The notes under the pieces are model-generated. The model was not told the origin of the DNA. It was given only the letters and a program-made list of their open reading frames with translations, and did not search any database. Shown piece after piece: positions 11,074 to 36,555 of a stretch of DNA of 64,000 bases; position 1 is the first letter of the stretch, and every line of letters begins with the position of its first letter. The translations under genes and the position numbers were made by a program. The DNA comes from Gammaproteobacteria bacterium (GTDB taxonomy: Bacteria > Pseudomonadota > Gammaproteobacteria > Coxiellales > Coxiellaceae). The stretch covers positions 1 through 64,000 of the forward strand of contig JAUIAD010000021.1 in assembly GCA_030425685.1 (NCBI GenBank), in the 5' to 3' direction.

Positions 11074-11085
11074 TTCAATCTCCCG

Positions 11086-11310
11086 TTAATAAACAATCAC
11101 CCAAATGGCCACCAATAAAATCAGCACCAATACCAGCTTGACCAGCCAACTATTGGGTTCTTCTGACTCATTCATTTGCGTCAACATTCCTTTGATAATG
11201 AATGCGCCCCAAACCACTGACAGTAGAAAAATCAGGGTTCGAATAAATATCGACAAACTCTCTCCTGAAAATCCGGCCGCTATTTGGAACCACTGGCTTA
11301 ATTGATCCAC
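11086..11310 (-). CDS. Small conjugative membrane protein, TIGR03758 family
   Basis: 74 residues with two membrane helices (IFIRTLIFLLSVVWGAFIIKG and WLVKLVLVLILLVAIWVIVY) and a short acidic loop between them. The position between RAQPRD and TIGR03745, the length and the FSGESLSIFIRTL start segment all fit TIGR03758. Role unknown; perhaps pilin-like or a pilin partner. Confidence 0.8.
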   Translation of the reverse strand: MDQLSQWFQIAAGFSGESLSIFIRTLIFLLSVVWGAFIIKGMLTQMNESEEPNSWLVKLVLVLILLVAIWVIVY

Positions 11311-11321
11311 ACCACTCTCCC

Positions 11322-11744
11322 CTACCGTCCAACATAGTCACCGTTCATAGGTGCAATTCTCTTGGGTGTTAAATTGGATTGATTAATTTGATTCACCAAA
11401 GCGGCTCTAATCTCAAGCAAGTTATCTTTGAGGCCATCGTGCTTCACCCCATTGGCATCAACCCAGCTATTAAAGTGGAACTGTACGCGAGCGGTTTTGT
11501 CTTGCTCTTTGGATGCTTGTTCTATCAGAGGGAATAAAGCATCGATCTGGTTAATCATACGCACCATCGTTTGATTCATCTGATCTGTGCTTGCTTGTGC
11601 CTGTACTGCTGGCAGAAGAGTGAATGAGATTAAAAACCCTAACAGCAGCACTTTCAGTTTTTTTGTTTTAAATTTTCCAACAACCCTCACAAAGACTTGT
11701 CTTATAGATTTAGTGGTTTTGTCATTAATCATTATTTCACTCAC
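11322..11744 (-). CDS. RAQPRD-family conjugative element protein
   Basis: 140 residues. It has an N-terminal hydrophobic export signal (VLLLGFLISFTLLPAVQAQA), then a helical domain with the family pattern INQIDALFPLIEQAS...ARVQFHFNSW...LTPKRIAPMNGDY. The name-giving RAQPRD motif at the mature N-terminus is not preserved here (QASTDQMNQ). The chosen GTG start at 11744 overlaps the TIGR03747 stop by 4 bp (GTGA); ATG at 11732 is the alternative. Exported, function unknown; conserved in GI/ICE-type transfer operons. Confidence 0.8.
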   Translation of the reverse strand: MSEIMINDKTTKSIRQVFVRVVGKFKTKKLKVLLLGFLISFTLLPAVQAQASTDQMNQTMVRMINQIDALFPLIEQASKEQDKTARVQFHFNSWVDANGVKHDGLKDNLLEIRAALVNQINQSNLTPKRIAPMNGDYVGR

Positions 11745-12472
11745 ACATATTTTTTAAATTTAGATACTGTTCTGGAAGCTAATAACAACGTCATTAAGCT
11801 CACGCCCATAAAAAACACGACTGGATTAATCCAAAGTGGCACAACCAAATAAATAGCAATCAAAAGCCACAAGACGCCTGGCACAAATCCTAAAAACCGA
11901 TGAAAAATAAAGCTCGACTCCCGCCCAAGCTCTGCTGTTCTCACTTCCCGCAGTGCGAAGCCATCAACCACCCCAAACAACCAGCTCAACCCTAAAAGAG
12001 GCAATGCCAATACAAATAATAAAAGCTTGCCTAACACCATGAGTGAGTTGTTTTTTGCAAGCGCTAACATTTCTACCACTCCTTGCTTAATGGAACGCCA
12101 AAGCTGACCTGCCTTGTGCTCAGCGGGTGCTAAATAGCTATTCCCTTTGCCGCCCATAGCACCTTGCAATTGACGGCCTGCCGTATTCATTGCGCTTGAA
12201 TGCGTAATGTTTTTAGCAGCACTGGCTATCAATGCACTGGTAGATGCCACAAAAGCAAAAACCTTTGTGTCTGAGTAGGTTCCCTCAATGTGTTGCTCTG
12301 CCCGCATCATGTTAATCAACCTGTTATTTGCCATTTCAAATCCACTTAAATGCCAATAAAAAACACTCAAACAAAAACTCAAAACCCATCCCCAAAAAAT
12401 ACCTTTTACGAGCGCTCCTATAATTCGATGACGACTAAACTTTTTTTTATTAATCGTCGATCCCTCTTTCAT
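11741..12472 (-). CDS. Conjugative element membrane protein, TIGR03747 family
   Basis: 243 residues with a short basic N-terminus, one membrane helix at about 18-38 (WGWVLSFCLSVFYWHLSGFEM), a soluble stretch and three closely spaced helices (LLLFVLALPLLGLSWLFGVVDG, FLGFVPGVLWLLIAIYLVVPLW, PVVFFMGVSLMTLLLASRTV). The RHRIIGALVKGIFWGWVLS start and REVRTAELGRESSFIFHR segment fit TIGR03747. In most ICEs the coupling protein gene traD sits just upstream; here the upstream neighbour is TIGR03765 with a 4-bp overlap, so traD is missing from its usual place. Confidence 0.85.
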   Translation of the reverse strand: MKEGSTINKKKFSRHRIIGALVKGIFWGWVLSFCLSVFYWHLSGFEMANNRLINMMRAEQHIEGTYSDTKVFAFVASTSALIASAAKNITHSSAMNTAGRQLQGAMGGKGNSYLAPAEHKAGQLWRSIKQGVVEMLALAKNNSLMVLGKLLLFVLALPLLGLSWLFGVVDGFALREVRTAELGRESSFIFHRFLGFVPGVLWLLIAIYLVVPLWINPVVFFMGVSLMTLLLASRTVSKFKKYV

Positions 12473-16180: not shown

Positions 16181-16226
16181 TTAGTTGTAATATAATTGCA
16201 TGCAACATTAATGTTTTTACAACTAA
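16181..16226. promoter_or_regulatory. Operator-like inverted repeat upstream of the XRE/S24 regulator
   Basis: TTAGTTGTAA (16181-16190) and TTACAACTAA (16217-16226) form a perfect 10-bp inverted repeat with a 26-bp spacer, ending 15 bp before the regulator start. The spacer is AT-rich and could hold the -10 region. A likely autoregulatory operator. Confidence 0.5.
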
Positions 16227-16241: not shown

Positions 16242-16937
16242 ATGGCAAAGAAATATCCAAAACTATCTTCGATTTTGAAGAGGCTACTATACGAGCGAGA
16301 CATTAAGCCTGTTGATCTTGCTAGGGCAGTCGATTTACCGCCGCCAACAATACACAGGCTGATTACCGGAAAATCTACACGCCCCTACGAAAGCTCACTC
16401 AAGCCCATTGCAGATTACTTTGACATAGAAGTCGACCAGCTACTGGGAGAAGCGCCTTTGCCTGGAGATCAAGCTCAGAGCCTCTCAGATGAAGGTTCAC
16501 ATAACCTGGCAAGCTCTGGCGTTTCAAGCATACCCCTACTACCTTGGCAATTTTTAGACAATTATGAAAATGGGGATGAATTTGAAGCTGTGCCTTTCGT
16601 TGGCACTATTAGCAAGGAAGGGTTCGCAACCATTATGCCTGACACCTCCATGGAGCCCTTCATCCAACGGAATGCCATTGTGATCTTCGACCCTTATGTT
16701 AAACCCACAGACCGGAATTGCATCCTAGTTAAATTGCGTGAAACAAAAGCATTTGTTGTTAGACAGTTACTCATCGATGCAGATCACCAATACCTTAAAC
16801 CACTCAACCCAGATTTAAGTGCATTTAAGATGCGCCTTCTGGACAAGAAAGATAGCGTAATAGCTACTTTGATTGAAATTAGATTTAACATCCAGAGCAA
16901 AGATAATCAGGGCATCCTAGGGGGGCTACAAAAATGA
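16242..16937 (+). CDS. XRE-family regulator with S24/LexA-like C-terminal domain
   Basis: 231 residues. The N-terminal helix-turn-helix (about 5-65) reads ILKRLLYERDIKPVDLARAVDLPPPTIHRLITGKSTRP. The C-terminal half (about 105-220) is LexA/CI-like: MPDTSMEP carries the Ser nucleophile and YLKPLNPD the CI-like strand. At the position of the catalytic Lys (VKRL in LexA) the protein has VVRQL, so Arg replaces Lys and self-cleavage is doubtful. It begins the operon that leads into the natural-product genes: the next start overlaps its stop (ATGA). It likely represses this operon and perhaps the divergent transfer operon. Confidence 0.85.
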   Translation: MAKKYPKLSSILKRLLYERDIKPVDLARAVDLPPPTIHRLITGKSTRPYESSLKPIADYFDIEVDQLLGEAPLPGDQAQSLSDEGSHNLASSGVSSIPLLPWQFLDNYENGDEFEAVPFVGTISKEGFATIMPDTSMEPFIQRNAIVIFDPYVKPTDRNCILVKLRETKAFVVRQLLIDADHQYLKPLNPDLSAFKMRLLDKKDSVIATLIEIRFNIQSKDNQGILGGLQK

Positions 16938-17458
16938 TAAAACGCATCATTAATAAGATTAAAGGTATTGCAAGCTATATTAACGCTGAAAGAGAAAAAG
17001 ATATTTATAAACCGCTGTATAAAGTGGTTGATATTTTAGAAACAGACGGCCAACACCTTGCTGTTATAAAACTTCTAAACAAGAACGTAACATTTAATGC
17101 AACACCAGAAGAAATACTGGCTAATGATAATTTAGTCGACCAGTTTTCACCAAGAGACATTAGAGCCTTAACATACCTTGGTTATCTTGGCATAAATAGT
17201 CCAAAATACAAAATTCTCGCCAGAAAGCTTTCTCAAAATGAAAAAATCAATTTTATTCTGCAAAAGAAAGGTGAGAAAAAAGTTATAGTCAAAACTGCCT
17301 CAGAGATAGTTTCTGAATCCAACCTCATTGACAGCATGAATCCAGAAGATGCCAAAACCGTTGGGTACACCATCGCTACTGAGACTATATCAGAGGAAAA
17401 AAGGCAAAAAGAAGCATTGCTAAAAGAGGCTCATCAAAATAGTTTAAATGAGAAATAA
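16934..17458 (+). CDS. Unknown protein with an internal repeat, coupled to the regulator
   Basis: 174 residues, soluble, rich in Lys, Ile and Asn. It contains two similar segments, about residues 47-85 (KNVTFNATPEEILANDNLVDQFSPRDI) and 113-148 (KKVIVKTASEIVSESNLIDSMNPEDA), each followed by a GY motif, suggesting a tandem small domain. The C-terminus is a charged helix. No family recognised. Its start overlaps the regulator stop and its stop lies 6 bp before the synthetase, so all three are cotranscribed; it could modulate the regulator. Confidence 0.6.
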   Translation: MIKRIINKIKGIASYINAEREKDIYKPLYKVVDILETDGQHLAVIKLLNKNVTFNATPEEILANDNLVDQFSPRDIRALTYLGYLGINSPKYKILARKLSQNEKINFILQKKGEKKVIVKTASEIVSESNLIDSMNPEDAKTVGYTIATETISEEKRQKEALLKEAHQNSLNEK

Positions 17459-17464
17459 ATTGAA

Positions 17465-20400
17465 ATGATCACCCTACATGAGAACAATTTAAAGCCTGTT
17501 GATGGTGTAGACTTAAAGCTACACCACATTGGTTACGCATGTAAGGATATCACAGAAGCATTAGATTTTTTCAAATCAGTCCATAACATCAAACATATCA
17601 GCAAAATCATTTATGACCCGATACAAAAAGCTAACCTCTGCATGCTGACAATGGAGAATTCAACTGACATCGAGCTTGTTTCAGGAGAATCTGTCAAACA
17701 CCTTATCGGTAATGGAACATGCGTTTATCATCTTTGTTACGAAACAAATAATATTTATAGGGCAATAAATTTCTTTAAACAACAAGGCGGCGTACAGTTA
17801 AATCAGCTCACCCCAGCAAAGCTATTCAACGAAAGAAATATTGTATTCATACAAACCAAAATTGGCTTAATTGAGTTACTTGAAAAAGAACCATGCTCTT
17901 TACCAACTAAATTGAGACATAAAATTATGGTCACTGGTACTTTTTCTATTGATAGCATCAGATCACGCCTGTCATCGTTATGTGAAAGATATCAGTTTCC
18001 GTACGAAGTCGAAACGCTTAATCACGACTCAATGAATATATTTCTCGCTGATCAAAACAGCGCTCTAAACAATAACAAAATAAATATAATCATGCTTAGA
18101 GAGCAAGATCTTATCGATAAATCGCCAGTGAAACCCAACAAGCTAAATGATTTTATCAACGCACTTTTATATTCATTTTCTCTAAAGCAATCACATTTCT
18201 TTTTATGCCTATGCCCTTCTTACTCCAACCATCACGACTCCAAAGATTGTCGCGACAGCATTAAAGAATTAGATCAGCATGAAAACATCACCTTAATCAA
18301 TTTAGATTTTCTAACCTCTGGCTTAAAAGACTCAGAGATATATGACCCAATAGCTGACAGAGAGGCTCAAGTACCTTACAAAACACATTTTGACAATCTG
18401 GTGTCCACACATGTTCTGAAAAAAATATACGCCTACTATCATAATTCATTTAAAGTCATCATTGTTGATTGTGACGACACGCTCTGGACCGGAATCTGTG
18501 GTGAGGATCCAATTGATAACATTGTAATATCTGACGCAAATATTTTATTGCAGAAAAAACTTAGAGCCCTGCGGGAAAGTGGATTTCTAATCTGTATTTG
18601 TAGTAGAAATCACGAAGAAGACGTCAGAACGATGTTCAGCAATCATCCCGATATGATATTGTCTGAATCAGACATAACTGCATGGCAGGTTAATTGGGAT
18701 GAAAAATCATCTAATCTTAGGGCTCTGTCAAATACATTAAATCTTCCAGTGTCCAGCTTTATTTTTATCGACGATAATCCTATAGAAATTTCCAACGTAG
18801 AGAACACGTTGAGTGACATATTATCTATACAATTTACAAATGACGCCAAGGAATTAAAACGAGTTCTTGACAATATATGGGCATTCGATAAAAAAAGAAC
18901 TGCGACTCAGGCTGCCGAAAGAAACGAGTGGTATTCTACACATATCAAACGTGAAAACGATAAAGCAAACTTTAACAATATTGATGATTTTATAAAAAAC
19001 CTAAACATCGAAATTAATATAAGCAAAGCTACTGAGGCAGATATATCAAGATTAGTAGAACTCTCACACCGAGTAACGCAATTTAACTTTACCAATAGAA
19101 AGTTTGATGTACATGAATTACGAACATTAATAAATGATGGTAAAAAAACTCACATTTTTAAAGTTAATTTGACAGATAAATATGGCGACTATGGCCTAGT
19201 TGGGTTCATGGTGATCAAAATTTCAGAGCACACAACTATCGAATCATTTTTACTAAGCTGTCGCGCTTTAAATAGGCATGTTGAAGAAAAAATGCTATGC
19301 CACCTAGTCGACTTCGCTAAAAATCTAAATATCAGTAGCATTATACTCAGGTTCAAACAGACTTCACGGAATTCACCAGCCAAATTGTTTATAGAAACAT
19401 TAAATGGCGATCTAAGATATATTAATGAAACAGAAATAGCCCTCACCATTGACACAAAAACAAAGCTTATTTTTAGTCGAAACTTAAGAACAAGCACATC
19501 GAGCAAAAAACCTATTAAACACATTCAAAATGGTCCTGGAAATTTGCTTATTGACAAAAAATCCATGTTTGAGCTATTGGATCTTACTGCAGACACATAT
19601 TCATTTAACAAAGATTCAATAAATCAAAACAATTCAGGAACAATAAACACAAATGACGATTTGCATAACATCTGGGAAGAAGTGCTCGACTTAAACAGCA
19701 TAGATGATTCAGATAATTTCTTTCACCTCGGCGGTAATTCACTATCTGCATTAAGGCTATTATCCCATATATGCGACTATTTTAAAGTTGATATAAAGTT
19801 ATATGAAATATTTGAACACCCTACCTTTTTTGATTTATTAAATCTCATACACGGCAGGTTAACATCAGACTCACAATATAATGCTAGACATTTGCCTTCA
19901 CTATATGAACAGTCAAGCAATGGTACACGCGACCTATCCTATAATGAGAAAAGCCTATGGTTGCTTGACAAGCTCTATGGTTCTACCTGGTTTTATAATA
20001 TTTCATCTGTTCGCTCTATCAAGGGCAAGTTAAATATATCTGCTTTCAAGTCAGCTATTCATTCTGTTATTACTAATAACAAGATTTTAGGATCTAGTCT
20101 CTCTATAGAAAATCACAAGCCTATAGTACTTGATGGTTTTGATGGCCCAATAAATTTTGAAGTTATAAATTCTGAAGAGATGAAAGAAAGCGATCTCAAT
20201 CTGCTTATTTCCAATATACAACTAAAAGCATTTAACCTGCATGAAGCTCCACTCTATAGAATCAAGCTATTAAAACGCTCCGATCAGGATCATGTCTTGG
20301 TTTTAGTTTTTCATCATATTATATTTGATGGGTGGTCAGAAGGACTTTTTAATAAACAACTTCAAATATGTTATCGAAATCACTTGTCTGGAAACCCGGA

Positions 20401-23400
20401 AAATCCATTAAATACAAACTACCACTATGGTGATTTTGTTGCTTGGCAAAAATCACTGTATGAATCTGAAAACTGTAGAAATAGCTTAAACTACTGGTCA
20501 AATGAATTAAAAGACTTTGCGCCTTTTCAACTACCAGGTAAAGCAACAATCAAACCAAATCAAAAGCATCAAGGACGTTATCACAATTTTAGAATTCCAG
20601 ATCAATTATACATCTCATTAAATAAATTAAAACATGAGCATAATACAACTTTATTCGTTCTCTTATATTCGTCTTTCCTGATTCTTTTACACAAGTATTC
20701 TAGAAGCAATGATATCACAATTGGCTTTCCGGTATCTGGGCGCCTCTTAAAAGAACTAGAAAACATCATGGGAAATTTTGTTTCAACCTTACCTATTAGA
20801 GGCAAACTCGATGAAAATATGGGAATAGATACCGTTATTAAAAATTCGCACAAAAAAGTAGCTGAAGCATATGAGAACCAGTTTGTGCCTTTCCAGAGTA
20901 TTGTTAATAGCCTAAAAAATCCAAGAAGCAAAGCTGATAACCCAATTTACCAAGTTATGATAGTGCTCCAAGATGCGCCAAACCAAACGCTTGATCTGGA
21001 TGACCTTAATGTTGATTTCTTTAAGCGTGGATATGATGCAGCCCGAATGGATCTCATCTTAGAATTCAATCTTATTAATGAGGTACTAGATGGCGGCATC
21101 TATTATGATATTTCATTATTTGATGATGTGTTTATTGATAAATTTACATGTGATTACATTAAAACCCTAGAATGTATTTGCTCATCCGAGGTTTACAATG
21201 TTAGTGACATAGCCTACGAACCTGTCGCATCACAACCAACTTGCACTTTCGAACCAATACATAACTTATTTCAATCGTCTGTGAATAAGTTCCCACATGG
21301 TCTAGCAGTTAAAGACAATAACAACACCCTCACCTATTCTGAACTAAATAATCATGCAAATTATTTAGCATCTTACTTGCGTGAGAAAGAAGGGATTCGA
21401 GAAAACGATATTGTTGTTTTGCACTTAAATCAAAACATTGATGTCATCGTTTGTATTTTAGCATGCTTCAAACTCGGCGCCACCTATGTTCCACTTGACC
21501 CAGACTATCCGAAAGAATTTAAACAACAAATACTAAACGATTGTGAGGCAAAACTACTTATCACCAATAATGATATCAGCCTTCCTATTTTTAATCGCAC
21601 CGTTTCACTGCGTGAAATAAATTTAGAATACAACGAGAGTACTCAATATAAATTGGAAAATGAATGCGTAAGTAATGACACCCCTGCTTACATCATTTAT
21701 ACCTCAGGCACAACTGGAAAACCAAAAGGCGTTATTATCACTCATGGAGCAATCGCAAATTTGATTTCTGCTCTACAACCCGTTTACAGATTATCTGAAA
21801 ATGATAATGGACTACTTTTTCATTCATTTTGCTTTGATTTTTCTGTGTGGGAAATTTGGTCCGTTTTGGCTTATGGCGGTAGGCTGGTGATCTCAGAAAA
21901 TGCAAGACAATATTCTTCCAATGATTTTTGGAAGCTAATCATTAGTGAAAAAATTACTATTCTCAACCAAACTCCCAGTGTATTTGAGAATTTCATGCTG
22001 AATAGCAATATTAGCTCTATCAAGGATGATATATCCTTGCGACTTATAATATTTGGTGGAGAACCCCTTTATCCAAAACGACTCCAACCTTGGGTTCAGG
22101 TATATGGTGATGACAAACCACGTTTATATAATATGTACGGTATCACCGAAGTAACGGTTCATGCATCCTATCAAAGGATCACAAGTGATATCATTGAGCC
22201 TAATAAAAGCTTGATTGGTAAAGCTATACCAGGCCTTGAGATTGAGTTATTTGATAAGGCAGAAAAACCTGCTCGCTCAAATGAGGAAGCAGAAATTTAT
22301 GTATCTGGTGCTGGGCTATCTTCCGGTTACCTTAATCAAGCTGATCTTACATCCAGATACTTTGTAAATATTAATAATAAAATCTGGTATAAAACTGGTG
22401 ATTTGGCTAAAAAGATTAATGGCAACATTGAATACCTTAGACGCTCTAGCAGTTATGTAAAGGTCAGGGGATTTCGAGTTACTCCGAACTATGTTTCGTC
22501 AGAAGTTGAAAAACACGCTGGAGTTTATAAAGCTGCGGTATTCGCGGATAACAACAGCTTACTATGCCTAGTTGTTCCTGACAAAACCACTGCGGCGCCA
22601 ATTATAAATGCCATTAGAAGCAATCATGCACAGACATACAGCAACCTTACCACGCTTCCTAATGGCATGGATATTTTTCAGCACAACAAATCAGAGGCCT
22701 TATTACAATACCAAGAAATATTTCAAAATCACGAATACAACAAGCATGGTATCTCTATTAATAATGGTGATACGGTGATTGATGTTGGTGCCAATATTGG
22801 CATGTTTTCATTATTTTTCGGCACTCAAATTGAAAATCTAAATATTTATGCATTTGAGCCTATTCCTGAGCTATATCGCACTTTAAAAAACAACATGGCT
22901 ATGTATGAAATTAATGCTATTTGCATTAATGCCGGCTTGTCAGATGAGCAAAAGAATTGTGCTTTCACCTACTTTCCTAACGTGTCTGTTTTATCTGGGA
23001 TAAATCCGAATCAAAGCGAAGTAGAATCCTTATTAAAAAATACACTTGCGAATAAAGATGATAGCAGCACCAATCACGCTGAAATAATAAAGGCTAGCTT
23101 AAATAAAAAACAGATAGATGCTGAATTAAACACATTATCAGACACTATCAATTTACATCATATTAAACATATCAATCTGCTGAAAATTGACGTGGAACGG
23201 CATGAATTAGAAGTGCTGAAAGGAATTAACAATGAGCACTGGGACTTAATCGATCAAGTGATCATTGAAGTTCATGACTTCGACAATCGACTGGAAATTA
23301 TTTCATCTTTATTAGAAAGCAATGGTTTTATAGTCAATATTGAGCGCCCATCTCTAATTGATAATAGTTGTATTGTTATTTTATACGCCAGAAAATCACA

Positions 23401-23890
23401 TTTAGTGACACAACCAAGAAAAATAGATTTAAGGTATCGCTATAAATGGCAATCTAAACAGAGTTTAATAAATGATGTGAAATCTTACATAAAATCAAAA
23501 CTTCCTGGCTATATGATCCCAACAGCATTCTTAGTTTTAGATCACATGCCAACTACCAATAATGGGAAAATAGACTTCGCAACTGCGCGCAAACTCTTTA
23601 ATCAAAATTTGCAGCCTTCCTCAAAGGATAAGGTACACATTGAAGAACACAATAGCATAACAAATCGACTTGCTGCGTGTTGGGCACAGGTTTTAGATGC
23701 TCATGAATATGATCATAACACTAATTTCTTTGATTTAGGTGGGGATTCGTTTTCATTGGTTACGCTACATCATCTAATATCTGAAAAAATTACCGAGTCC
23801 ATAGAGCTTATGGATTTATTCACCCATACAACTATTAGGCAACAGGCGAAATATATTAAATCAAAGATTTCAGGAGAAGTTCATGGCTGA
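17465..23890 (+). CDS. Hybrid NRPS: VOC-FkbH-ACP-C-A(FkbM MT)-PCP
   Basis: 2141 residues. Domains in order: VOC/glyoxalase-like (18-142, LHHIGYACKD); FkbH (about 150-700) with the HAD motif DCDDTLWTG at 335, FIDDNP near 435 and acyltransferase-like QFNFTNR near 540; carrier LGGNS (Ser759); condensation domain with HHIIFDG (His950/His951); adenylation domain with YTSGTTGKPKG near 1412, NMYGITE at 1556 and YKTGD; FkbM-type methyltransferase inserted before motif A10 (DVGANIGMFSLF at 1773, AFEPIPE); A10 NGKID (Lys2035); carrier LGGDS (Ser2095). Specificity residues D1458 F1459 W1462 N1501 I1529 G1531 M1557 V1565 H1566 K2035 equal the classical threonine code. FkbH enzymes load glyceryl from 1,3-bisphosphoglycerate, so a glyceryl- or O-methylglyceryl-threonine intermediate is inferred. 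No Sfp-type PPTase is nearby. Confidence 0.92.
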   Translation: MITLHENNLKPVDGVDLKLHHIGYACKDITEALDFFKSVHNIKHISKIIYDPIQKANLCMLTMENSTDIELVSGESVKHLIGNGTCVYHLCYETNNIYRAINFFKQQGGVQLNQLTPAKLFNERNIVFIQTKIGLIELLEKEPCSLPTKLRHKIMVTGTFSIDSIRSRLSSLCERYQFPYEVETLNHDSMNIFLADQNSALNNNKINIIMLREQDLIDKSPVKPNKLNDFINALLYSFSLKQSHFFLCLCPSYSNHHDSKDCRDSIKELDQHENITLINLDFLTSGLKDSEIYDPIADREAQVPYKTHFDNLVSTHVLKKIYAYYHNSFKVIIVDCDDTLWTGICGEDPIDNIVISDANILLQKKLRALRESGFLICICSRNHEEDVRTMFSNHPDMILSESDITAWQVNWDEKSSNLRALSNTLNLPVSSFIFIDDNPIEISNVENTLSDILSIQFTNDAKELKRVLDNIWAFDKKRTATQAAERNEWYSTHIKRENDKANFNNIDDFIKNLNIEINISKATEADISRLVELSHRVTQFNFTNRKFDVHELRTLINDGKKTHIFKVNLTDKYGDYGLVGFMVIKISEHTTIESFLLSCRALNRHVEEKMLCHLVDFAKNLNISSIILRFKQTSRNSPAKLFIETLNGDLRYINETEIALTIDTKTKLIFSRNLRTSTSSKKPIKHIQNGPGNLLIDKKSMFELLDLTADTYSFNKDSINQNNSGTINTNDDLHNIWEEVLDLNSIDDSDNFFHLGGNSLSALRLLSHICDYFKVDIKLYEIFEHPTFFDLLNLIHGRLTSDSQYNARHLPSLYEQSSNGTRDLSYNEKSLWLLDKLYGSTWFYNISSVRSIKGKLNISAFKSAIHSVITNNKILGSSLSIENHKPIVLDGFDGPINFEVINSEEMKESDLNLLISNIQLKAFNLHEAPLYRIKLLKRSDQDHVLVLVFHHIIFDGWSEGLFNKQLQICYRNHLSGNPENPLNTNYHYGDFVAWQKSLYESENCRNSLNYWSNELKDFAPFQLPGKATIKPNQKHQGRYHNFRIPDQLYISLNKLKHEHNTTLFVLLYSSFLILLHKYSRSNDITIGFPVSGRLLKELENIMGNFVSTLPIRGKLDENMGIDTVIKNSHKKVAEAYENQFVPFQSIVNSLKNPRSKADNPIYQVMIVLQDAPNQTLDLDDLNVDFFKRGYDAARMDLILEFNLINEVLDGGIYYDISLFDDVFIDKFTCDYIKTLECICSSEVYNVSDIAYEPVASQPTCTFEPIHNLFQSSVNKFPHGLAVKDNNNTLTYSELNNHANYLASYLREKEGIRENDIVVLHLNQNIDVIVCILACFKLGATYVPLDPDYPKEFKQQILNDCEAKLLITNNDISLPIFNRTVSLREINLEYNESTQYKLENECVSNDTPAYIIYTSGTTGKPKGVIITHGAIANLISALQPVYRLSENDNGLLFHSFCFDFSVWEIWSVLAYGGRLVISENARQYSSNDFWKLIISEKITILNQTPSVFENFMLNSNISSIKDDISLRLIIFGGEPLYPKRLQPWVQVYGDDKPRLYNMYGITEVTVHASYQRITSDIIEPNKSLIGKAIPGLEIELFDKAEKPARSNEEAEIYVSGAGLSSGYLNQADLTSRYFVNINNKIWYKTGDLAKKINGNIEYLRRSSSYVKVRGFRVTPNYVSSEVEKHAGVYKAAVFADNNSLLCLVVPDKTTAAPIINAIRSNHAQTYSNLTTLPNGMDIFQHNKSEALLQYQEIFQNHEYNKHGISINNGDTVIDVGANIGMFSLFFGTQIENLNIYAFEPIPELYRTLKNNMAMYEINAICINAGLSDEQKNCAFTYFPNVSVLSGINPNQSEVESLLKNTLANKDDSSTNHAEIIKASLNKKQIDAELNTLSDTINLHHIKHINLLKIDVERHELEVLKGINNEHWDLIDQVIIEVHDFDNRLEIISSLLESNGFIVNIERPSLIDNSCIVILYARKSHLVTQPRKIDLRYRYKWQSKQSLINDVKSYIKSKLPGYMIPTAFLVLDHMPTTNNGKIDFATARKLFNQNLQPSSKDKVHIEEHNSITNRLAACWAQVLDAHEYDHNTNFFDLGGDSFSLVTLHHLISEKITESIELMDLFTHTTIRQQAKYIKSKISGEVHG

Positions 23891-26603
23891 CATAGCAATC
23901 ATCGGGTTATCCTGCCGATTCCCAGGCGCAAATAATGCAGATGAGTTCTGGAGCAATATTCTTCATGGCACTGAATCAATACAAACAGTAAATCCTGATC
24001 GCCTTCAAGCATACGGTGTTAATAAACTACTTTCATCACACCCGAATTATATTAATGCCTGTGCATTTTTAAACGACATCGATAAGTTTGATAATGATCT
24101 TTTCAAAATTAGTGACCTTGAGGCAGCTGCGATGGATCCGCAACATAGGTTATTTCTCCAAGAAGCATACCATGCATTAGAAGATTCTGGATATTCACCT
24201 GAAAAATATGATGGCAGAATTGGTATTTATGCAGGCTCTGGGCCTACGCAGTATTATCATGAACTAATAAAAAATAACTTTTTTGAGAGACATCCACAAA
24301 GCAGACAACTTCTTTATTATCTTGGCAACGAGAAAGATTTTCTTGCATTACGTGTTGCATATGCACTAAACCTTACAGGGCCTGCTATTAATATTAACCT
24401 AGCAAGCGCAACTGGCCTTGCCGTTGTTGTTAAAGCCTGCCAATCCCTCATCAATGGTGAGGCAGATATCATGTTAGCAGGAGCAAGTTCCGTAATATTA
24501 CCAACCCAATTTGGCTATATTCACGAACCAGGCAACATCTTCTCTGCTGATGGGCACTGTAGGCCATTCGATAAGAATAGTTCCGGCACTGTTCTTGGAT
24601 CTGGTGTTGGTATACTCGTTCTTAAACGCCTAGATCAGGCCATCAAAGATAAGGATTCAATATACGCAGTTTTAAAGGGCTACGCTATAAATAACGATGG
24701 CAATCAAAAGATAGGGTTTACTGCGCCCAGTATTCAAGGGCAAGCTGATTGTGTTAAAGAAGCACTACGAATCGCAAATGTTAACCCTAAACAAATTCAT
24801 TTTATAGAAGCACATGGAACAGGTACGCATCTTGGCGATCCAATCGAAATTACTGCGTTAACTAAAGGGTTAAATGTCACAGACCCCAACACTTGTGCCA
24901 TAGGATCTGTAAAAGCCAATATAGGTCATGCTCAATCTGCAGCTGGCATGGCAGGTCTAATAAAAATGATTCTATCCATTAAAAATAAAACGGTTCCTCC
25001 TGCTATTAATTTCAGTGAACCCAACCCACGAATTAATTTTAATAACTCTCCATTCTATGTAAACACAACCCCTATCAATTGGGTAGATGACACCAGAATT
25101 GGAGGGGTTAATGCGCTTGCTATGGGAGGTGTCAATGCACATGTTATCGTGGCTAACTTTGACAGCGAGAAAAATAGCAAGGCCAAATTTAAATATGATT
25201 ACAATATTATTCCGCTGTCAGCAAACTGCGAAAAATCACTAGAAATAATGCAAAAAAACTTAATATCCTACTTAAGCAACCTTTCAGAAAATATGCTTCA
25301 TGACAGTGGCACGTTAAACTCAATTGCTTACACATTACAAGTGGGTAGAAATGATTTTCCAATTAAAAGAGCCTATATTTGTAACAACCCTTACAGTTTA
25401 TTAGAGTCACTTAGAAATGAATTGCCAAATAAATCCACACCTCTCGACCATATACTAAATGATTGGCTATCTGACGAGCCTATAAAATGGAAATATTTAT
25501 ACAGTGATATCCCTCAAATAAGCCACCTGCCTAAGTATCCATTTTTAGAAAATTCTCACTGGTTGTTGGAATCAGATAAAGACCTTCTCTCTGGCAAAGC
25601 AGTTAAACAAGAGAAGCAGACCACACCAAAAAACTACAGCTTTGAAGAAATCATAGAAAAATTATCTGGTATTTGGGTGAAATCACTTAATCTCAAAACT
25701 TTTGATCCACATGATGACTTCTCCTCACTTGGTGGCGATTCATTACTATCATTGGAAATTATTACAGAAATCGAAAAAGAATTAGGTTTCACATTAAGCA
25801 TCGACCAATTCATGAAGGAAAGTAGCGTAGTCAACCTATCAAAACTTATCAGCAATCATAGCGAGTCGTCTCAGACAAAGGCCGCTCTGCATATATTAAA
25901 TGATTACTCACCACACAACATAAACTTATTTATTGTGCATCCAGGCAATGGAGAAATTTATTTTTACAAAGAATTAGCAAAAAAACTAAATACAAAAATT
26001 AATTTAGTCGGGATCAATAATAATGTTTTCAATGACATTGTGCAGGATGAGGCCATTTCTATCAAAGAACTAGCTGCGATTTACGTAAGCTTAATAAAAG
26101 AGTTGCAACCAACTGGCCGTTATAGTTTAGCTGGTTGGTCATTCGGTGGAGTGGTTGCATTTGAGATGGCTCAGCAGCTTGAGAATAATAAAGATGGCGT
26201 TGAAAGGTTATTTCTAATAGACAGCTGGGCAAAATATTCCAAAAAATTGAATGACGAAAATTATTTTTTCAATACTTACTTAAGTTCTAATGATGACGCT
26301 CTACCATTGAGTAAAACAGGGCTGTGGGGAGAATTATTGTGGAAAAGAATGCAAGCATTATTTGAATATCAACCAGTTCAACTTAATACACTGGTTACTC
26401 TATTGAAAGCATCATCAATTAATACGGAATACCAAGAAATCAATGCTTGTGACAACCACTGGCAACAGTATTGTAAACAACCTATTGCGACTGTTCTCAT
26501 TGAAGGAAATCACGAAACAATGTTAGAGAGTTCTGGATTAGAACGCATCGCTAATAGCATTAGCTCTACCGTTTTTTCGTCACACGACTTATTGGAGAAA
26601 TAA
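23883..26603 (+). CDS. PKS module KS-ACP-TE with a Ser-for-Cys ketosynthase, no AT
   Basis: 906 residues; its start overlaps the NRPS stop by 8 bp. KS spans about 1-425: the nucleophile motif reads NLASATG, with Ser175 where DTACSS has Cys, while the two His (EAHGTGT His311; ANIGH His349) and Lys344 are kept. A post-KS flanking segment (IAYTLQVGR, LPKYPFLENSHW) resembles trans-AT modules; no AT, KR or DH is present. ACP LGGDS (Ser620) follows, then an alpha/beta thioesterase (GWSFGG Ser753; GNHE His877). It would take the threonyl chain from the NRPS and release it by hydrolysis or cyclisation. With Cys lost the KS may not elongate; it may only pass the chain on, or act by another chemistry. 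An AT acting in trans is not in the window. Confidence 0.9.
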   Translation: MADIAIIGLSCRFPGANNADEFWSNILHGTESIQTVNPDRLQAYGVNKLLSSHPNYINACAFLNDIDKFDNDLFKISDLEAAAMDPQHRLFLQEAYHALEDSGYSPEKYDGRIGIYAGSGPTQYYHELIKNNFFERHPQSRQLLYYLGNEKDFLALRVAYALNLTGPAININLASATGLAVVVKACQSLINGEADIMLAGASSVILPTQFGYIHEPGNIFSADGHCRPFDKNSSGTVLGSGVGILVLKRLDQAIKDKDSIYAVLKGYAINNDGNQKIGFTAPSIQGQADCVKEALRIANVNPKQIHFIEAHGTGTHLGDPIEITALTKGLNVTDPNTCAIGSVKANIGHAQSAAGMAGLIKMILSIKNKTVPPAINFSEPNPRINFNNSPFYVNTTPINWVDDTRIGGVNALAMGGVNAHVIVANFDSEKNSKAKFKYDYNIIPLSANCEKSLEIMQKNLISYLSNLSENMLHDSGTLNSIAYTLQVGRNDFPIKRAYICNNPYSLLESLRNELPNKSTPLDHILNDWLSDEPIKWKYLYSDIPQISHLPKYPFLENSHWLLESDKDLLSGKAVKQEKQTTPKNYSFEEIIEKLSGIWVKSLNLKTFDPHDDFSSLGGDSLLSLEIITEIEKELGFTLSIDQFMKESSVVNLSKLISNHSESSQTKAALHILNDYSPHNINLFIVHPGNGEIYFYKELAKKLNTKINLVGINNNVFNDIVQDEAISIKELAAIYVSLIKELQPTGRYSLAGWSFGGVVAFEMAQQLENNKDGVERLFLIDSWAKYSKKLNDENYFFNTYLSSNDDALPLSKTGLWGELLWKRMQALFEYQPVQLNTLVTLLKASSINTEYQEINACDNHWQQYCKQPIATVLIEGNHETMLESSGLERIANSISSTVFSSHDLLEK

Positions 26604-26606
26604 CTC

Positions 26607-27326
26607 ATGATATCAACATCACTTAAAACCAAACAATTTTCATGGGACCTTTGCGGCTCTCCATATCTATTATTCTTAATTGTTTTATATGTGACATTTA
26701 GCCTGCTGGGGACAGTATTGCTTTACAAACTGGTCGTTGTTGGGCCGGGAATGGCTCCAGGTGGTTTGTTTGTTCTTCCTTTTGTTTTATTAATAGAAGA
26801 TATTGTTGCTGAGGTTTATGGCTACAAGATTTCACGACTACTGCTGTGGTTCGTATTTTTAAGTATGATTATCTTCACGATTGGTGCCTTAATAATTATT
26901 CATTTACCATCACCACCCTACTGGCATCTACAATCAAGTTTTGATGCTGTTTTCGATCCGATATTGCGAGGCGCACCATCTTTAATATTAGCGTTGATGG
27001 TTTCTAGATTTATTAATATTTTTCTTATCACTAAACTTAAAATCCTGGTAAAAGGTAAATATTTTTGGCCTCGCAGCATTTTCTCAACACTACTCGGTGG
27101 CGCAATCGGGTTGATCATTGCATTTGGGCTTGCATATGGAACAAGCGTACCTTTAGCAGGCTTTGAAAAACTCATTCTAACAGACTACGTTGTACGATTT
27201 TTATATGCAATGTTGGGTGGTGGTCCTGCCTGGCTATTTGTCATTTTCTTAAAGAAAAGAGAAAACATCGATGTTTATGATGTCGGAACAAACTTCAATC
27301 CATTCAAACTCACACTAAAAGATTAA
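26607..27326 (+). CDS. VUT/YhhQ-type membrane protein in the biosynthetic operon
   Basis: 239 residues with about six membrane helices. The signature PGGLFVLPFVLLIEDIVAEVYGY matches the VUT family, whose best known member YhhQ imports queuosine precursors. It starts 3 bp after the KS-ACP-TE gene and 14 bp before the first hydrolase, so it belongs to the pathway operon. It is unlikely to be just a queuosine transporter here; it may move the product or a precursor. The KEKREN-like cytoplasmic tail is short. Substrate unknown. Confidence 0.75.
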   Translation: MISTSLKTKQFSWDLCGSPYLLFLIVLYVTFSLLGTVLLYKLVVVGPGMAPGGLFVLPFVLLIEDIVAEVYGYKISRLLLWFVFLSMIIFTIGALIIIHLPSPPYWHLQSSFDAVFDPILRGAPSLILALMVSRFINIFLITKLKILVKGKYFWPRSIFSTLLGGAIGLIIAFGLAYGTSVPLAGFEKLILTDYVVRFLYAMLGGGPAWLFVIFLKKRENIDVYDVGTNFNPFKLTLKD

Positions 27327-27340
27327 AGCGGGAGAATACT

Positions 27341-28207
27341 ATGCCTTTTGTTACTATTGATGATATAAAGCTCTACTACCTCACTGTTGATGATATCGAT
27401 AATGATAAGCCTACACTGGTTTTTCTACATGGTGGAGCGGGCATGGCAGATCATAGCATTTATGTATCTTTTTGGTCTCAGTTATCCTCGCAAGTCAACG
27501 TTGTTTTGATAGACCAACGTGGATGTGGAAAAAGCGAAAAAGGAGATCCCTACAAGTGGAATCTTACACAACACGGGAAAGATGTTTTTTCCTTCTGTGA
27601 AGCACTAGATATCCAACACCCTATTGTCGCGGGCGTTTCATGGGGTGGGTACGTCGCTATTTCCTATGCAATACAATACCCAGATCATCCCCAAGCACTC
27701 ATTCTTTGTAATACAGAAGCAAAAGTCTCACCAGAAGAACGATACAAAGCCTTTTTACGCATAGCTAATATTGATGCTGCTAATGCCGTCAGAGCATTTG
27801 ATGCCGATTGGAATTCAACTACGAACGCAGAATATTTTCGATTATGCTTACCCTTCTACGCAAAAAAAGCCTACACCTCTGATGAACTAGCTGGATGTAT
27901 TCGCAACCCTGACCTATGGTCAAGATACATGTTGACCGAGCATGGTAGATTTGACTTTACCGCTAACCTACACAAAATTCATTGCCCTGTGCTTCACTTG
28001 GCTGGTGAGAATGATCCTGTTCATCCTGTATCCTGCGCGATTGATACAGCAAAACATATTGGTAAGAACTGTGAATTATCTATCATTAAAGATACTGGCG
28101 ATCCTGTTTACAGGGACAGACCTAAAGAAACAGTTAAGGTTATCTCAGATTTTTTTTTAAGATCACTGACTAGCCAGCCAACCCCACGGTTACGCGCAAG
28201 ATTATAA
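27341..28207 (+). CDS. Alpha/beta hydrolase, proline-iminopeptidase-like, lacking the usual His
   Basis: 288 residues. The oxyanion motif is FLHGGAGMADHS, the nucleophile elbow GVSWGG and the acid END, as in the prolyl aminopeptidase group. The place where the catalytic His should be (GH before YRDRPKE) reads TGDPVYRDRP, so Asp-Pro replaces it. The neighbouring DPVHP segment has a His, but in the acid loop. The protein may be inactive, a binding protein, or use a shifted His. ATG at 27341 has GGGAGAA upstream. Encoded in the pathway operon. Confidence 0.8.
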   Translation: MPFVTIDDIKLYYLTVDDIDNDKPTLVFLHGGAGMADHSIYVSFWSQLSSQVNVVLIDQRGCGKSEKGDPYKWNLTQHGKDVFSFCEALDIQHPIVAGVSWGGYVAISYAIQYPDHPQALILCNTEAKVSPEERYKAFLRIANIDAANAVRAFDADWNSTTNAEYFRLCLPFYAKKAYTSDELAGCIRNPDLWSRYMLTEHGRFDFTANLHKIHCPVLHLAGENDPVHPVSCAIDTAKHIGKNCELSIIKDTGDPVYRDRPKETVKVISDFFLRSLTSQPTPRLRARL

Positions 28208-28231
28208 TCCACCACCAGGAGAAATTATTTT

Positions 28232-29032
28232 ATGAGTTATTTTAGCAACAGCGGCACACAACTTTATTATGAAACACATGGCGAAGGCGATCCCTTATTA
28301 ATCATTCCGGGTGGCGGCGCAGATGGCAGATACTATCTACCAATCGTTGATATTTTAAAAAACAACTATCAGGTCATATTACCTGATCCTAGAGGCTCTG
28401 GAAGAAGCGAAAAAGGGTCTCAAGACTATTCATTTGATCTCCTTGCTGAAGATATGAAAGCGCTGCTAGATCATCTAAATATCAATCAAACGTTTATTCT
28501 GGGACATTCGATGGGCGGCATGGTTGCCCAACACTTCGCATGCCACTATCCCTTATATGCACGTAAACTTATTTTATTCGCCACAAGCAACAAGCTAACC
28601 GCTTTTGGAAAACACTGCTGTAAAACAGCCATGATCACCAAAACCGAAGCATCACTGAAAGCATTGATGCATGTTATGGCTATTTGGAATTTTAGCGAAT
28701 CATTTTTTAGTGATGAAAACAACATGAACAACTTGATTTCTGGAGCAGAAGACGATCCCTACCCTATTCAAAATCAATCTCTAATAGAGCAGATGGAAGT
28801 TATAAAGGACTTTGACAGCTCATCATATTTAAGTAATATCAAAGTTCCATCACTTATTGTCGGCTGTGAGAATGATATTATTTTTCCAGTTGCTAGCGTA
28901 AAGAATTTAAAAACTCTTATTGCTAACGCGGCCTATCAGGAAATTGAAGGTACAGCCCATTCTGCGCATATTGAACAGCCTAAAGTGGTTGCTGATGTAA
29001 TCAATAATTTTTTACTGTCTACTAGTAATTAA
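28232..29032 (+). CDS. Alpha/beta hydrolase with intact catalytic triad
   Basis: 266 residues. Motifs are PGGGADGRYY, DPRGSGRSEKG, the nucleophile GHSMGG, the acid END and His in TAHSAHIEQP. It starts 25 bp after the previous hydrolase, with AGGAGAA upstream, and ends the biosynthetic operon. Related enzymes act as esterases, lactonases or proofreading thioesterases; in this context it may edit stalled chains, process the product or detoxify it. It and the preceding hydrolase share the sequence pattern RGxGxSEKG, so they may be old duplicates. Confidence 0.82.
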   Translation: MSYFSNSGTQLYYETHGEGDPLLIIPGGGADGRYYLPIVDILKNNYQVILPDPRGSGRSEKGSQDYSFDLLAEDMKALLDHLNINQTFILGHSMGGMVAQHFACHYPLYARKLILFATSNKLTAFGKHCCKTAMITKTEASLKALMHVMAIWNFSESFFSDENNMNNLISGAEDDPYPIQNQSLIEQMEVIKDFDSSSYLSNIKVPSLIVGCENDIIFPVASVKNLKTLIANAAYQEIEGTAHSAHIEQPKVVADVINNFLLSTSN

Positions 29033-30105: not shown

Positions 30106-30214
30106 AAAAATTTCAATGCAAATAATGTAAGCGTCCGGCCAAACCCATCTTTTCCTCGTACTTTTTAGCATGTAATCTGATGTGGATTCACTAAAAGTGC
30201 TGAGGATAAAACCC

Positions 30215-30529
30215 ATGAAAAAAAATCTAATGAGCCCACCTTATCTCGGTGACTCGACGCAGCAAGAGCGTCACCAATTTTGGCAACAGGTTATTGATCA
30301 GTATAACTCATCTGGCTTAACGCTTCGAGAGTTTTGCACTCGTCATGGAGTGCAATACGATGCACTCACACGATGGCGTCATCGATTGAAGAAAAAAGAC
30401 GAGCACAATAAATTTACCCATTCTGTCTCTTCTGGTTTAGCAGAAGTCGTATTAATTGACGGTCAGGATAAGAATAAACAACCTGGAGCAGAACAACGAG
30501 CCAGTATCTCACTGGAAAAAATGGGGTGA
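30215..30529 (+). CDS. tnpA: IS66 accessory protein TnpA, frameshifted
   Basis: 104 residues from ATG 30215 (GAGGA eight bases upstream). The helix-turn-helix region HQFWQQVIDQYNSSGLTLREFCTRHGVQYDALTRWRHRL is typical of IS66 TnpA. The frame stops early at 30527-30529, right after an A6 run (30516-30521). Reading -1 from that run continues as NGVIIHISSHFDTTLL and ends LEELPC at 30606, overlapping the tnpB start as in normal IS66 elements. So either a one-base change broke the gene or the A6 run is a slippage site. Confidence 0.85.
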   Translation: MKKNLMSPPYLGDSTQQERHQFWQQVIDQYNSSGLTLREFCTRHGVQYDALTRWRHRLKKKDEHNKFTHSVSSGLAEVVLIDGQDKNKQPGAEQRASISLEKMG

Positions 30530-30599
30530 TTATTCATATCAGCTCACATTTTGATACGACACTGTTGCATCGTGTGCTTGCCTCACTGGAGGAGCTACC

Positions 30600-30953
30600 A
30601 TGTTGAATTTACCGGGTGGATTAAAAGTATTCGTCGCGACTGAGCCAACGGATATGCGTCGTTCACACGATGGATTATCGATGATGGTGAATGCCTTACA
30701 TCATAACCCCACGTCGGGTGACTTGTTTGTATTTTTTAATAAGCACTGCAACCGGGTAAAAATCCTGTACTGGGAGCGTACAGGTTTCTCATTGTGGTAT
30801 GAACGCTTAGAGGATGGTGTATTTAGGCCGCCGTGCATCCATGGAAAAATTTATCCACTGAGCATTCAAGAGCTGACGTTGTTGCTGGAAGGCATTGACT
30901 TGACAACAAAGCGCACCTTGTCTACGGTATCGTCTGCATTGACTGTGGATTAA
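30600..30953 (+). CDS. tnpB: IS66 family Orf2 protein TnpB
   Basis: 117 residues. The family signature is LPGGLKVFVATEPTDMRRSHDGLSMMV, followed by DLFVFFNKHCNRVKILYWERTGFSLWYERLEDG and the basic LEGIDLTTKR region. TnpB is needed with TnpA for efficient IS66 transposition; its biochemical role is unclear. The end of the full-length tnpA frame overlaps its ATG. Length is normal (115-120). Confidence 0.93.
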   Translation: MLNLPGGLKVFVATEPTDMRRSHDGLSMMVNALHHNPTSGDLFVFFNKHCNRVKILYWERTGFSLWYERLEDGVFRPPCIHGKIYPLSIQELTLLLEGIDLTTKRTLSTVSSALTVD

Positions 30954-30974
30954 TCAAAAAGGAGGCTCACAGGG

Positions 30975-32735
30975 ATGCGTGACCAACTATTAATTCTTCA
31001 ATTACTCTCGGTGGTTGTCTGTCAAGAAAAAATAATCGCGAGTATGCGTCAACAAGTGAGGCAAGTGACAGTACTGCATGCGCAAGTTGAAGAACAGGCT
31101 AAAAAAATAAAGGCACTCGAAATAGCACTTTCAGAATTTGAATCTATTGAGCAAGAGTTGAAGACACTCAAAGACTACGTCTTTGGTCAGCGCTCTGAAA
31201 AGTCACCGCCAGAGGAAGATCCTGAGGAGACAGGAGAACAAGAAGACGCTGATTCTAAGGAAATCTCCTTTGAAACCGTAGGCAGTTATCAGCGCAAAAA
31301 AAGGAAAAAGCGTTCCGATCGCTTACCGCCAGATATTCCGCGCATTCAAATCATCTACGATATTCCTGAAACGCAGAAGACCTGTGCTTGTGGGTGTGGG
31401 CAGCTACTTAAAAAAATCGGTGAAGAGGTGACCGAACAGTTATGCGTCATACCCGAGAAAATGTACGTTAAACAGCACATACAATACAAATACGCGGGAT
31501 GTCCCCATGAAAGCGGTGTAATAACAGCCCCTAAAATAAAATCACCGATACCAAAAAGTATTGCCAGCCCAGAAATTATTGCGCACACAGCGATCAATAA
31601 GTTTGAAGATCATCTGCCGTTGTATCGACAAGAGAAAAGATACGGTCGTTACGATATTGATATTGCGCGTCAAGTACAATGTGACTGGCTAATAAAAGCC
31701 GCTGAGGTTCTTGAGCCAATGTATCAGTTAATAAAGCAGCGGGTGTTCTTAGCACCTATTATCAATACTGACGATACACCTATCCCCGTTCAAAATAAAG
31801 GTTCTGGAAAGACAAAAACAGGTCGGCTATGGGTGTATGCTAGCCATGGTGATGATATACAACCGTATGTGATCTACGACTATACTGAAGATCGAACCCA
31901 AGCCCATCCACAAGCGATGTTTGCTGGGTATGGCGGTTATATTCAAGCGGATGCCTATCCTGGTTATGATGCATTATTCTTAAAAGAGCAAAAAAACAGC
32001 CGAAAAAAAGGCGACATCATTCAGCCCAGTCCAATAGAAAATATCGATGGTGATAACCCCATCAAATTAACACCCACTGAAGTGGGCTGTATGATGCATT
32101 GTCGACGTAAATTCTTCACCATTGCCAAACAAAGCAAGAAAAAAGGGATTGCTTATGAAGCTGTGCAGCGTATCAAGGCATTATACGCGATTGAGAAGCG
32201 AGCCAAAGAAGAAGGCTTGGATAGTCAAGCCCGCTATACTTTACGCCAACAAGAAGCAAAATCACTCGTTGACGCTTTCTTTGCTTGGCTGGAAGAGCAA
32301 AAGGATAAGGTATTACCACAATCACCTACGGCAAAGGCGATACAGTACGCGCTCAATAATAAAAAAGCCTTAATGCTATACTTAGATAATGGTATGTTGG
32401 AAATTGATAATGGATGGGCTGAGCGATTAATTAAACCCACCACGATAGGTCGTAAAAATTATATGTTCTTTGGCAGTGATCGTGGTGGCGTAGCTGGCTC
32501 TCGATACTATAGTTTGATTGAGTCCGCTAAACTACAGGGGCTAAAAACCCATGAATATATCAGTGATTTATTATTCAGGCTTCCTATGAAGCTGTATAAT
32601 AAACTGGAAGACTTGCTGCCACACCAATGGAAGCCACTGGAGCTAGACCTTACAAAACCGATTATTGTGGAAGAGCTGCTGCAAAGCTTCGAAAGAAATA
32701 TTGGAGAGGCTGTTGAGCATGAGGATACTTCCTGA
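30975..32735 (+). CDS. tnpC: IS66 family DDE transposase TnpC
   Basis: 586 residues. Order: N-terminal leucine-zipper coiled coil (about 20-65), acidic linker, zinc-binding segment CACGCGQLLKKIGEE near residue 137, DNA-binding region, and the DDE catalytic domain with NTDDTPIPV (first Asp), QADAYPGYDALF (second Asp) and NGWAERLIKPTTIGRKNYMFFGS (Glu). The long insert between the second and third acids holds MMHCRRKFF. Length is somewhat above the family average (500-530). No disruption is visible, so the element may still be active. Confidence 0.95.
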   Translation: MRDQLLILQLLSVVVCQEKIIASMRQQVRQVTVLHAQVEEQAKKIKALEIALSEFESIEQELKTLKDYVFGQRSEKSPPEEDPEETGEQEDADSKEISFETVGSYQRKKRKKRSDRLPPDIPRIQIIYDIPETQKTCACGCGQLLKKIGEEVTEQLCVIPEKMYVKQHIQYKYAGCPHESGVITAPKIKSPIPKSIASPEIIAHTAINKFEDHLPLYRQEKRYGRYDIDIARQVQCDWLIKAAEVLEPMYQLIKQRVFLAPIINTDDTPIPVQNKGSGKTKTGRLWVYASHGDDIQPYVIYDYTEDRTQAHPQAMFAGYGGYIQADAYPGYDALFLKEQKNSRKKGDIIQPSPIENIDGDNPIKLTPTEVGCMMHCRRKFFTIAKQSKKKGIAYEAVQRIKALYAIEKRAKEEGLDSQARYTLRQQEAKSLVDAFFAWLEEQKDKVLPQSPTAKAIQYALNNKKALMLYLDNGMLEIDNGWAERLIKPTTIGRKNYMFFGSDRGGVAGSRYYSLIESAKLQGLKTHEYISDLLFRLPMKLYNKLEDLLPHQWKPLELDLTKPIIVEELLQSFERNIGEAVEHEDTS

Positions 32736-36554: not shown

Positions 36555-36555
36555 A

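What the first reader, a model, noticed from the sequence alone, without database searches (positions are those of the whole stretch)
16242..29032. A glycerate-threonine NRPS/PKS pathway carried beside a conjugation operon
The plus-strand operon has a regulator, an unknown protein, VOC-FkbH-ACP-C-A(MT)-PCP, KS-ACP-TE, a membrane protein and two hydrolases. Seen directly: domain order and motifs. Known: FkbH domains activate glycerate from 1,3-bisphosphoglycerate; FkbM domains O-methylate. Inferred: a small (O-methyl)glyceryl-threonine product, perhaps with one polyketide step. I do not recall a described cluster with this exact order. Being next to transfer genes implies it can move between hosts.
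Basis: partly seen in the sequence, partly recalled or inferred. Interest (0 to 1): 0.88.

Follow-up and report, generated by a model that had tools for sequence, protein, structure and literature searches.

The report
Plasmid NRPS-PKS with serine ketosynthase
A seven-gene operon on a plasmid-like stretch of a gammaproteobacterial genome encodes a small, uncharacterised assembly line predicted to join glycerate to threonine; its ketosynthase has a serine where the catalytic cysteine should be, the same swap is kept in a second bacterium with the same operon, and its regulator-transporter genes recur beside other small-molecule and butyrolactone-type genes.

Summary
The operon is real and intact: seven plus-strand genes, 16242-29032. 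The domain order is confirmed as VOC-FkbH-ACP-C-A(FkbM)-PCP, then KS-ACP-TE without AT, then a Vut_1-type transporter and two hydrolases. The A-domain code DFWNIGMVH supports threonine. (1) The two synthetases have the layout of MucD/MucE (mutanocyclin/reutericyclin), and the KS falls in a tree with muc-like KS-ACP-TE proteins. (2) The KS nucleophile is Ser175, not Cys. All 43 compared KSs have Cys; of 43 near-invariant columns only Cys175-Ser176 is changed in both copies. So the inferred 'one polyketide step' is open. (3) One other genome found in the collections (MAG SKS3.bin72) has all seven genes in the same order (45-70% identity), the same Ser, and a ParA/ParB pair upstream. Regulator, 174-aa protein and usually transporter recur elsewhere, often beside AfsA, AvrD/KASIII or NRPS genes. 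Best reading: a muc-like glyceryl-(O-methyl)threonine pathway with a functional serine KS, under a recurring regulator module. Mobility is plausible but not shown: Rep3 and ParAB are present, but the transfer operon is cut by the contig end and contains no relaxase or coupling protein. The product is unknown.

The parts
16181..16226 (.). 10-bp perfect inverted repeat TTAGTTGTAA-N26-TTACAACTAA just upstream of the regulator; candidate operator
   Evidence: 0 of 60 shuffles reach arm 10; L112 has TTAGTGGT-N11-ACCACTAA at a similar place, which 18 of 60 shuffles match
16242..16937 (+). XRE-type HTH + S24-fold regulator (REG); S24 Ser136 kept, residue at the catalytic Lys position is Arg174
   Evidence: 57% identical ortholog in L112
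16934..17458 (+). 174-aa orphan protein (UNK), partner of REG
   Evidence: no Pfam/NCBIfam match; homologs next to REG in many loci; fold unmatched
17465..23890 (+). NRPS, 2141 aa: VOC-FkbH-ACP-C-A(FkbM)-PCP
   Evidence: ortholog L112:7378-13833, 45% identity
17510..17890 (+). VOC (glyoxalase/epimerase-like) domain with the HHIGYA, YHxCYE and GLIELLE motifs
   Evidence: PDB 2qh0, 2.6e-16
17915..19408 (+). FkbH region: N-terminal part plus HAD glyceryl transferase/phosphatase domain
   Evidence: TIGR01686 1.1e-78 at aa 329-648; PDB 3slr
19658..19846 (+). ACP for the FkbH-loaded unit
19949..21187 (+). Condensation domain, HHIIFDG
21269..22564 (+). Adenylation core, code DFWNIGMVH (threonine)
22781..23332 (+). 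FkbM methyltransferase inserted between A core and A C-terminal subdomain
   Evidence: PF05050 4.8e-15; SAM motif DVGANIGMFS shared with L112
23666..23863 (+). PCP
23883..26603 (+). AT-less PKS, 906 aa: KS-ACP-TE
   Evidence: ortholog L112:13808-16192, 57% identity
24405..24407 (+). Codon AGC for Ser175, at the position of the KS catalytic Cys
26607..27326 (+). Vut_1/TIGR00697-type membrane transporter (VUT)
   Evidence: 70% identical in L112
27341..28207 (+). alpha/beta hydrolase 1
   Evidence: 68% identical over the compared part in L112
28232..29032 (+). alpha/beta hydrolase 2
   Evidence: 55% identical at G401:C41:17794-18588

Best explanation
A muc-like two-protein assembly line. Steps: (i) FkbH loads a glyceryl unit from 1,3-bisphosphoglycerate on the first ACP, and the fused VOC domain, a metal-dependent epimerase/lyase fold, probably adjusts that unit (inferred). 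(ii) C joins glycerate to threonine activated by A. (iii) The embedded FkbM O-methylates the threonine side chain (inferred). (iv) The AT-less KS-ACP-TE takes the dipeptidyl unit. Its KS uses Ser175 in place of Cys, is functional rather than decayed, and most likely acts as an acyl transferase from PCP to ACP; decarboxylative extension with malonyl from a trans AT is the alternative. (v) TE releases or cyclises the product. Predicted products: C8H15NO6, 221.09 Da without extension, or the pyrrolidine-2,4-dione C10H15NO6, 245.09 Da with it. REG and UNK control the operon and VUT moves the product or its precursor (inferred). Shown: gene order, domains, conserved motifs, conservation of the Ser swap in a second genome, purifying selection. 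Not shown: any activity, product, expression or transfer.
For: Domains. Thr code identical to a Nostoc A-FkbM module, DFWNIGMVH. C-A-PCP / KS-ACP-TE is the MucD/MucE layout, with MucE activity shown in vitro (PMC10161427). KS tree groups window and L112 (support 1.0) in a clade (0.945) with the L. plantarum and Priestia muc-like KS-ACP-TE proteins (clusters). Only Cys175-Ser176 deviates in both copies among 43 near-invariant KS columns; HGTGT and NIGH are kept. Ser shared by L112. Third codon positions differ at about 0.55-0.61 against 0.11-0.30 at second positions. FkbH in NRPS lines loads glycerate (PMC8949500). A KS-fold enzyme with Ser, DpsC, transfers acyl groups to its ACP (PMC12664062).
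Against: DpsC is KASIII-like with a Ser-His-Asp triad, so the analogy is loose. No natural type I KS with Ser was found in the papers searched. The A8 motif of the window A domain is degenerate (RSSSY against RKDND in L112), which could weaken adenylation. L112 has a different code (DVWSIAMVY), so the amino acid may differ. The site methylated by FkbM is not established. No phosphopantetheinyl transferase or trans AT was traced.
Confidence: 0.55

Rival explanations
1. The KS is catalytically dead and serves only as a docking or scaffold part; TE on the PKS releases a dipeptide delivered directly from PCP to the second ACP or TE.
For: The Cys nucleophile is absent in both known copies.
Against: The His and Lys/His motifs are kept, and only two of 43 near-invariant columns are changed in both copies; a dead domain should drift over the 38% KS divergence between the copies.
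Confidence: 0.2
2. The Ser KS still performs decarboxylative elongation, so the product is an N-glyceryl tetramate (pyrrolidine-2,4-dione) as in mutanocyclin.
For: Same architecture and clade as muc-like KS-ACP-TE proteins, whose characterised member MucE extends and closes the ring.
Against: Ser is a poor substitute for Cys in a KS (general knowledge); the PhlACB-type acetylation genes that accompany the L. plantarum and Priestia clusters are absent here.
Confidence: 0.25
3. The Ser KS is a malonyl-ACP decarboxylase, like KSQ, giving acetyl-ACP.
For: The nucleophile-lacking KSQ type is established (general knowledge); His residues are kept.
Against: KSQ domains sit at the start of PKS lines; here the KS follows a dipeptide module.
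Confidence: 0.05
4. The operon is silent or decaying.
For: A8 motif degenerate; no expression data.
Against: All seven ORFs are intact and syntenic with L112, and the genes tested show purifying selection.
Confidence: 0.08

Closest known systems
MucD/MucE of mutanocyclin and the matching reutericyclin synthetases (tetramate NRPS-PKS; PMC10161427)
   Same: One C-A-PCP module followed by a separate AT-less KS-ACP-TE protein; KS related by tree to muc-like proteins
   Different: Here the starter is VOC-FkbH-ACP, FkbM is embedded in A, the KS has Ser for Cys, and there are no acetylation genes
FkbH-containing NRPS lines (vioprolide, cystomanamide; PMC8949500)
   Same: FkbH plus carrier protein supplies a glyceryl unit inside an NRPS
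   Different: No VOC fusion reported in the passages read; products are larger lipopeptides
Nostoc sp. UHCC 0926 plasmid pn1 C-A(FkbM)-PCP module (L029)
   Same: FkbM inserted in an A domain with identical Thr code; 34% identity
   Different: Part of a long multimodular cluster with Cys KS; no FkbH seen in the stretch examined
Syntenic operon of MAG SKS3.bin72 (L112, JAJZTL010000016.1)
   Same: All seven genes in the same order; Ser KS
   Different: 45-70% identity; A code DVWSIAMVY; PKS lacks most of the region between KS and ACP
AfsA/ArpA butyrolactone signalling
   Same: Only by analogy: several REG cassettes lie beside AfsA-type genes
   Different: The regulator here is XRE-S24, not the TetR-type ArpA, and this operon has no AfsA

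Membership tests
MucD/MucE-type tetramate synthases | C-A-PCP followed by a separate AT-less KS-ACP-TE protein | tested here: met
MucD/MucE-type tetramate synthases | KS groups with muc-like KSs | tested here: met
   support 0.945; S. mutans MucE itself not in the tree, L. plantarum and Priestia proteins used
MucD/MucE-type tetramate synthases | KS catalytic Cys for malonyl extension | tested here: not met
MucD/MucE-type tetramate synthases | PhlACB-type C-3 acetylation genes in the cluster (muc and rtc core genes) | tested here: not met
   not among the operon's genes; such genes present in L051 and L052
MucD/MucE-type tetramate synthases | Pyrrolidine-2,4-dione product | not testable with these tools
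   needs chemistry
FkbH glyceryl-loading starter | HAD motif, conserved Cys motif and adjacent ACP | tested here: met
   DCDDT, SCRALNR, ACP at aa 732-794
FkbH glyceryl-loading starter | Transfers glyceryl from 1,3-bisphosphoglycerate | not testable with these tools
   biochemical
Thr-activating A domain with embedded O-methyltransferase | Thr specificity code and MT inserted in A | tested here: met
   methylation of Thr itself not tested
DpsC-like Ser ketosynthase | Ser-His-Asp triad in a KASIII-type enzyme | tested here: not met
   type I KS with Ser and KS-type HGTGT/NIGH motifs; works-like analogy only
Self-cleaving LexA/CI S24 repressor | Ser/Lys catalytic dyad | tested here: not met
   Ser136 kept, Arg174 at the Lys position, by alignment
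Self-transmissible ICE or plasmid | Complete transfer apparatus with relaxase and coupling protein | tested here: inconclusive
   TIGR037xx genes and PilL2 present, operon cut at contig end; TraD on contig C12; only a weak TraI_2 hit on C60

The most novel reading that the evidence does not exclude
REG-UNK-VUT is a portable sensing and transport module that pairs with different signal synthases (AfsA, AvrD/KASIII, NRPS, Ser-KS NRPS-PKS) in gammaproteobacteria, so the glyceryl-threonine product would be a plasmid-borne cell-to-cell signal sensed by a non-cleaving S24 regulator, made by a new class of serine ketosynthase.
Probability: 0.25. Interest if true: 0.85.

Novelty: new variant of a known kind. 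Interest (0 to 1): 0.68.

Why it matters
A conserved Cys-to-Ser swap in an otherwise intact type I ketosynthase gives a clean natural test of whether serine can serve as the KS nucleophile and what reaction results. The recurring regulator-orphan-transporter module, seen beside rare AfsA genes, points to possible small-molecule signalling in poorly studied gammaproteobacteria and makes that question testable.

Tried and rejected
A scan of genome contigs with the NRPS alone found no close relative; the orphan protein UNK was the key that found L112. Relatives, class and order searches with VOC-FkbH found FkbH proteins with other architectures but none with this one. Considered and rejected: random loss of the KS active site (two copies share it, other invariant columns are kept); SOS-cleavable repressor (Lys to Arg); a known plasmid cluster (no record covers 80% of the NRPS). 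The Ser seen in PDB 8xju/8xjy may be an engineered mutant and was not used as a precedent. The UNK fold search gave nothing significant. Puwainaphycin was checked as an O-methylthreonine precedent; the paper reports the residue but not an FkbM domain. The inverted repeat upstream of L112 is not beyond chance. MIBiG and antiSMASH were not available.

Full report
Observation. The seven genes at 16242-29032 are open, closely packed and on one strand. G+C is 0.34-0.39 in the operon against 0.40-0.44 in the 16 kb upstream.

Specificity and accessory domains. The A-domain code read by alignment is DFWNIGMVH, the Thr code, and is identical in a Nostoc A-FkbM module. FkbM lies between the A core and its C-terminal part. 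The VOC domain keeps the HHIGYA, YHxCYE and GLIELLE motifs, largely shared with L112, so a metal-dependent role on the loaded unit is plausible but inferred. FkbH in NRPS lines supplies glycerate (PMC8949500).

The ketosynthase. Alignment puts Ser175 (AGC, 24405-24407) at the catalytic Cys. In a second alignment of 43 KSs, all with Cys, 43 columns are near-invariant; the window and L112 together deviate only at Cys175 and Ser176, and the window alone at two more. HGTGT and NIGH remain. The second-genome KS also has Ser (NINLGSATG). Codon positions show purifying selection on the five genes compared. The swap is therefore old and kept, and the domain is probably functional. What reaction it performs is not known; DpsC, a KS-fold enzyme with Ser, transfers acyl groups to ACP (PMC12664062) but has a different triad.

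Closest architecture. Mutanocyclin is built by MucD (C-A-PCP) and MucE (KS-ACP-TE, loaded with malonyl by a separate transferase in vitro), which extends and closes a pyrrolidine-2,4-dione ring (PMC10161427). Similar proteins with acetylation-type genes sit on L. plantarum pLQ801 and a Priestia plasmid, and their KSs fall in the same clade as ours (0.945). The window operon differs in starter, embedded FkbM, Ser KS and lack of acetylation genes, so it works like a muc-type line but fails defining features.

A second copy. A genome-contig scan with a UNK alignment found L112 (JAJZTL010000016.1, MAG SKS3.bin72) with REG, UNK, NRPS, PKS, VUT, HYD1 and HYD2 in the same order, identity 0.57, 0.53, 0.45, 0.57, 0.70, 0.68 and 0.55. 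Upstream lie ParA, ParB and a Toprim/helicase-like ORF; downstream a further NRPS. This supports the operon boundaries and links both copies to plasmid-type genes.

The regulator module. REG with UNK, and usually VUT, recurs in other gammaproteobacterial genomes; UNK matches 14 of 369 sampled genomes of the class, though the weaker matches include short single-domain proteins. Neighbours include NRPS (L113), an NRPS-PKS (L085), AfsA (L116, L117), AvrD with two KASIII and an AMP ligase (L114), KASIII (L117, L119) and ATP-grasp (L115). L124 has AfsA near a REG homolog and VUT, with no UNK detected in that stretch. AfsA passes its cut-off in only 3 of 369 genomes, and in two of them (G324, G328) it lies within about 5 kb of a REG homolog. 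More divergent copies, including one on contig C43 of the window's own genome, are not beside such genes. No formal control against random loci was run. The REG S24 domain keeps Ser136 but has Arg at the Lys position in all but one of eleven sequences. UNK has no significant fold match.

Mobility. The contig is 67,306 bases with no terminal overlap and carries Rep3, ParA and two ParB genes, and IS66 genes just downstream of the operon. The transfer operon is PFGI-1/ICE-type and ends at the contig edge; no coupling protein lies between the TIGR03765 and TIGR03747 genes; a TraD is on contig C12, and the only relaxase-type hit is weak. Carriage on a plasmid is likely, self-transfer unproven.

Verdict. 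A real, conserved operon with no described match found: a new variant of the muc-type NRPS-PKS with a serine KS, tied to a recurring regulator module whose function is a hypothesis.

Noticed in passing
window 30182-32735: IS66-type transposase genes (tnpA/B/C-like) directly downstream of the operon.
   Followed up: partly
window 46639-51063: ParB, Rep3 initiator, second ParB-like and ParA genes, arguing for a plasmid.
   Followed up: partly
window 33456-38316: Cytochrome bd oxidase I/II genes beside an iron-sulfur protein and a succinate dehydrogenase/fumarate reductase-like flavoprotein, on the same plasmid-like contig.
   Followed up: no
window 56318-58017: Two overlapping integrase-like ORFs, perhaps a broken integrase gene.
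   Followed up: no
window 40593-46577: Photolyase-related protein, amine oxidase-like FAD protein, SDR and an AlbA-2/HATPase protein; a further photolyase-like ORF (by eye) lies at contig 65407-66912.
   Followed up: no
L157 (G000:C43) 10157-12149: Second REG-VUT-UNK set in the window's own genome, next to a nucleosidase-like ORF (by eye).
   Followed up: partly
L116 9293-14549; L117 6451-9733; L124 7570-12826: AfsA-type genes beside REG, mostly with UNK and VUT, in gammaproteobacterial genomes.
   Followed up: partly
L114 2883-19100: AvrD (syringolide-type) gene with two KASIII, an AMP ligase and a VUT near a REG-UNK pair in MAG GWF2_41_13.
   Followed up: partly
L086 5044-14062: A-PCP-KS-ACP-TE in one protein with a VUT gene nearby (genome G061, which also has REG-UNK-VUT on another contig).
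   Followed up: partly
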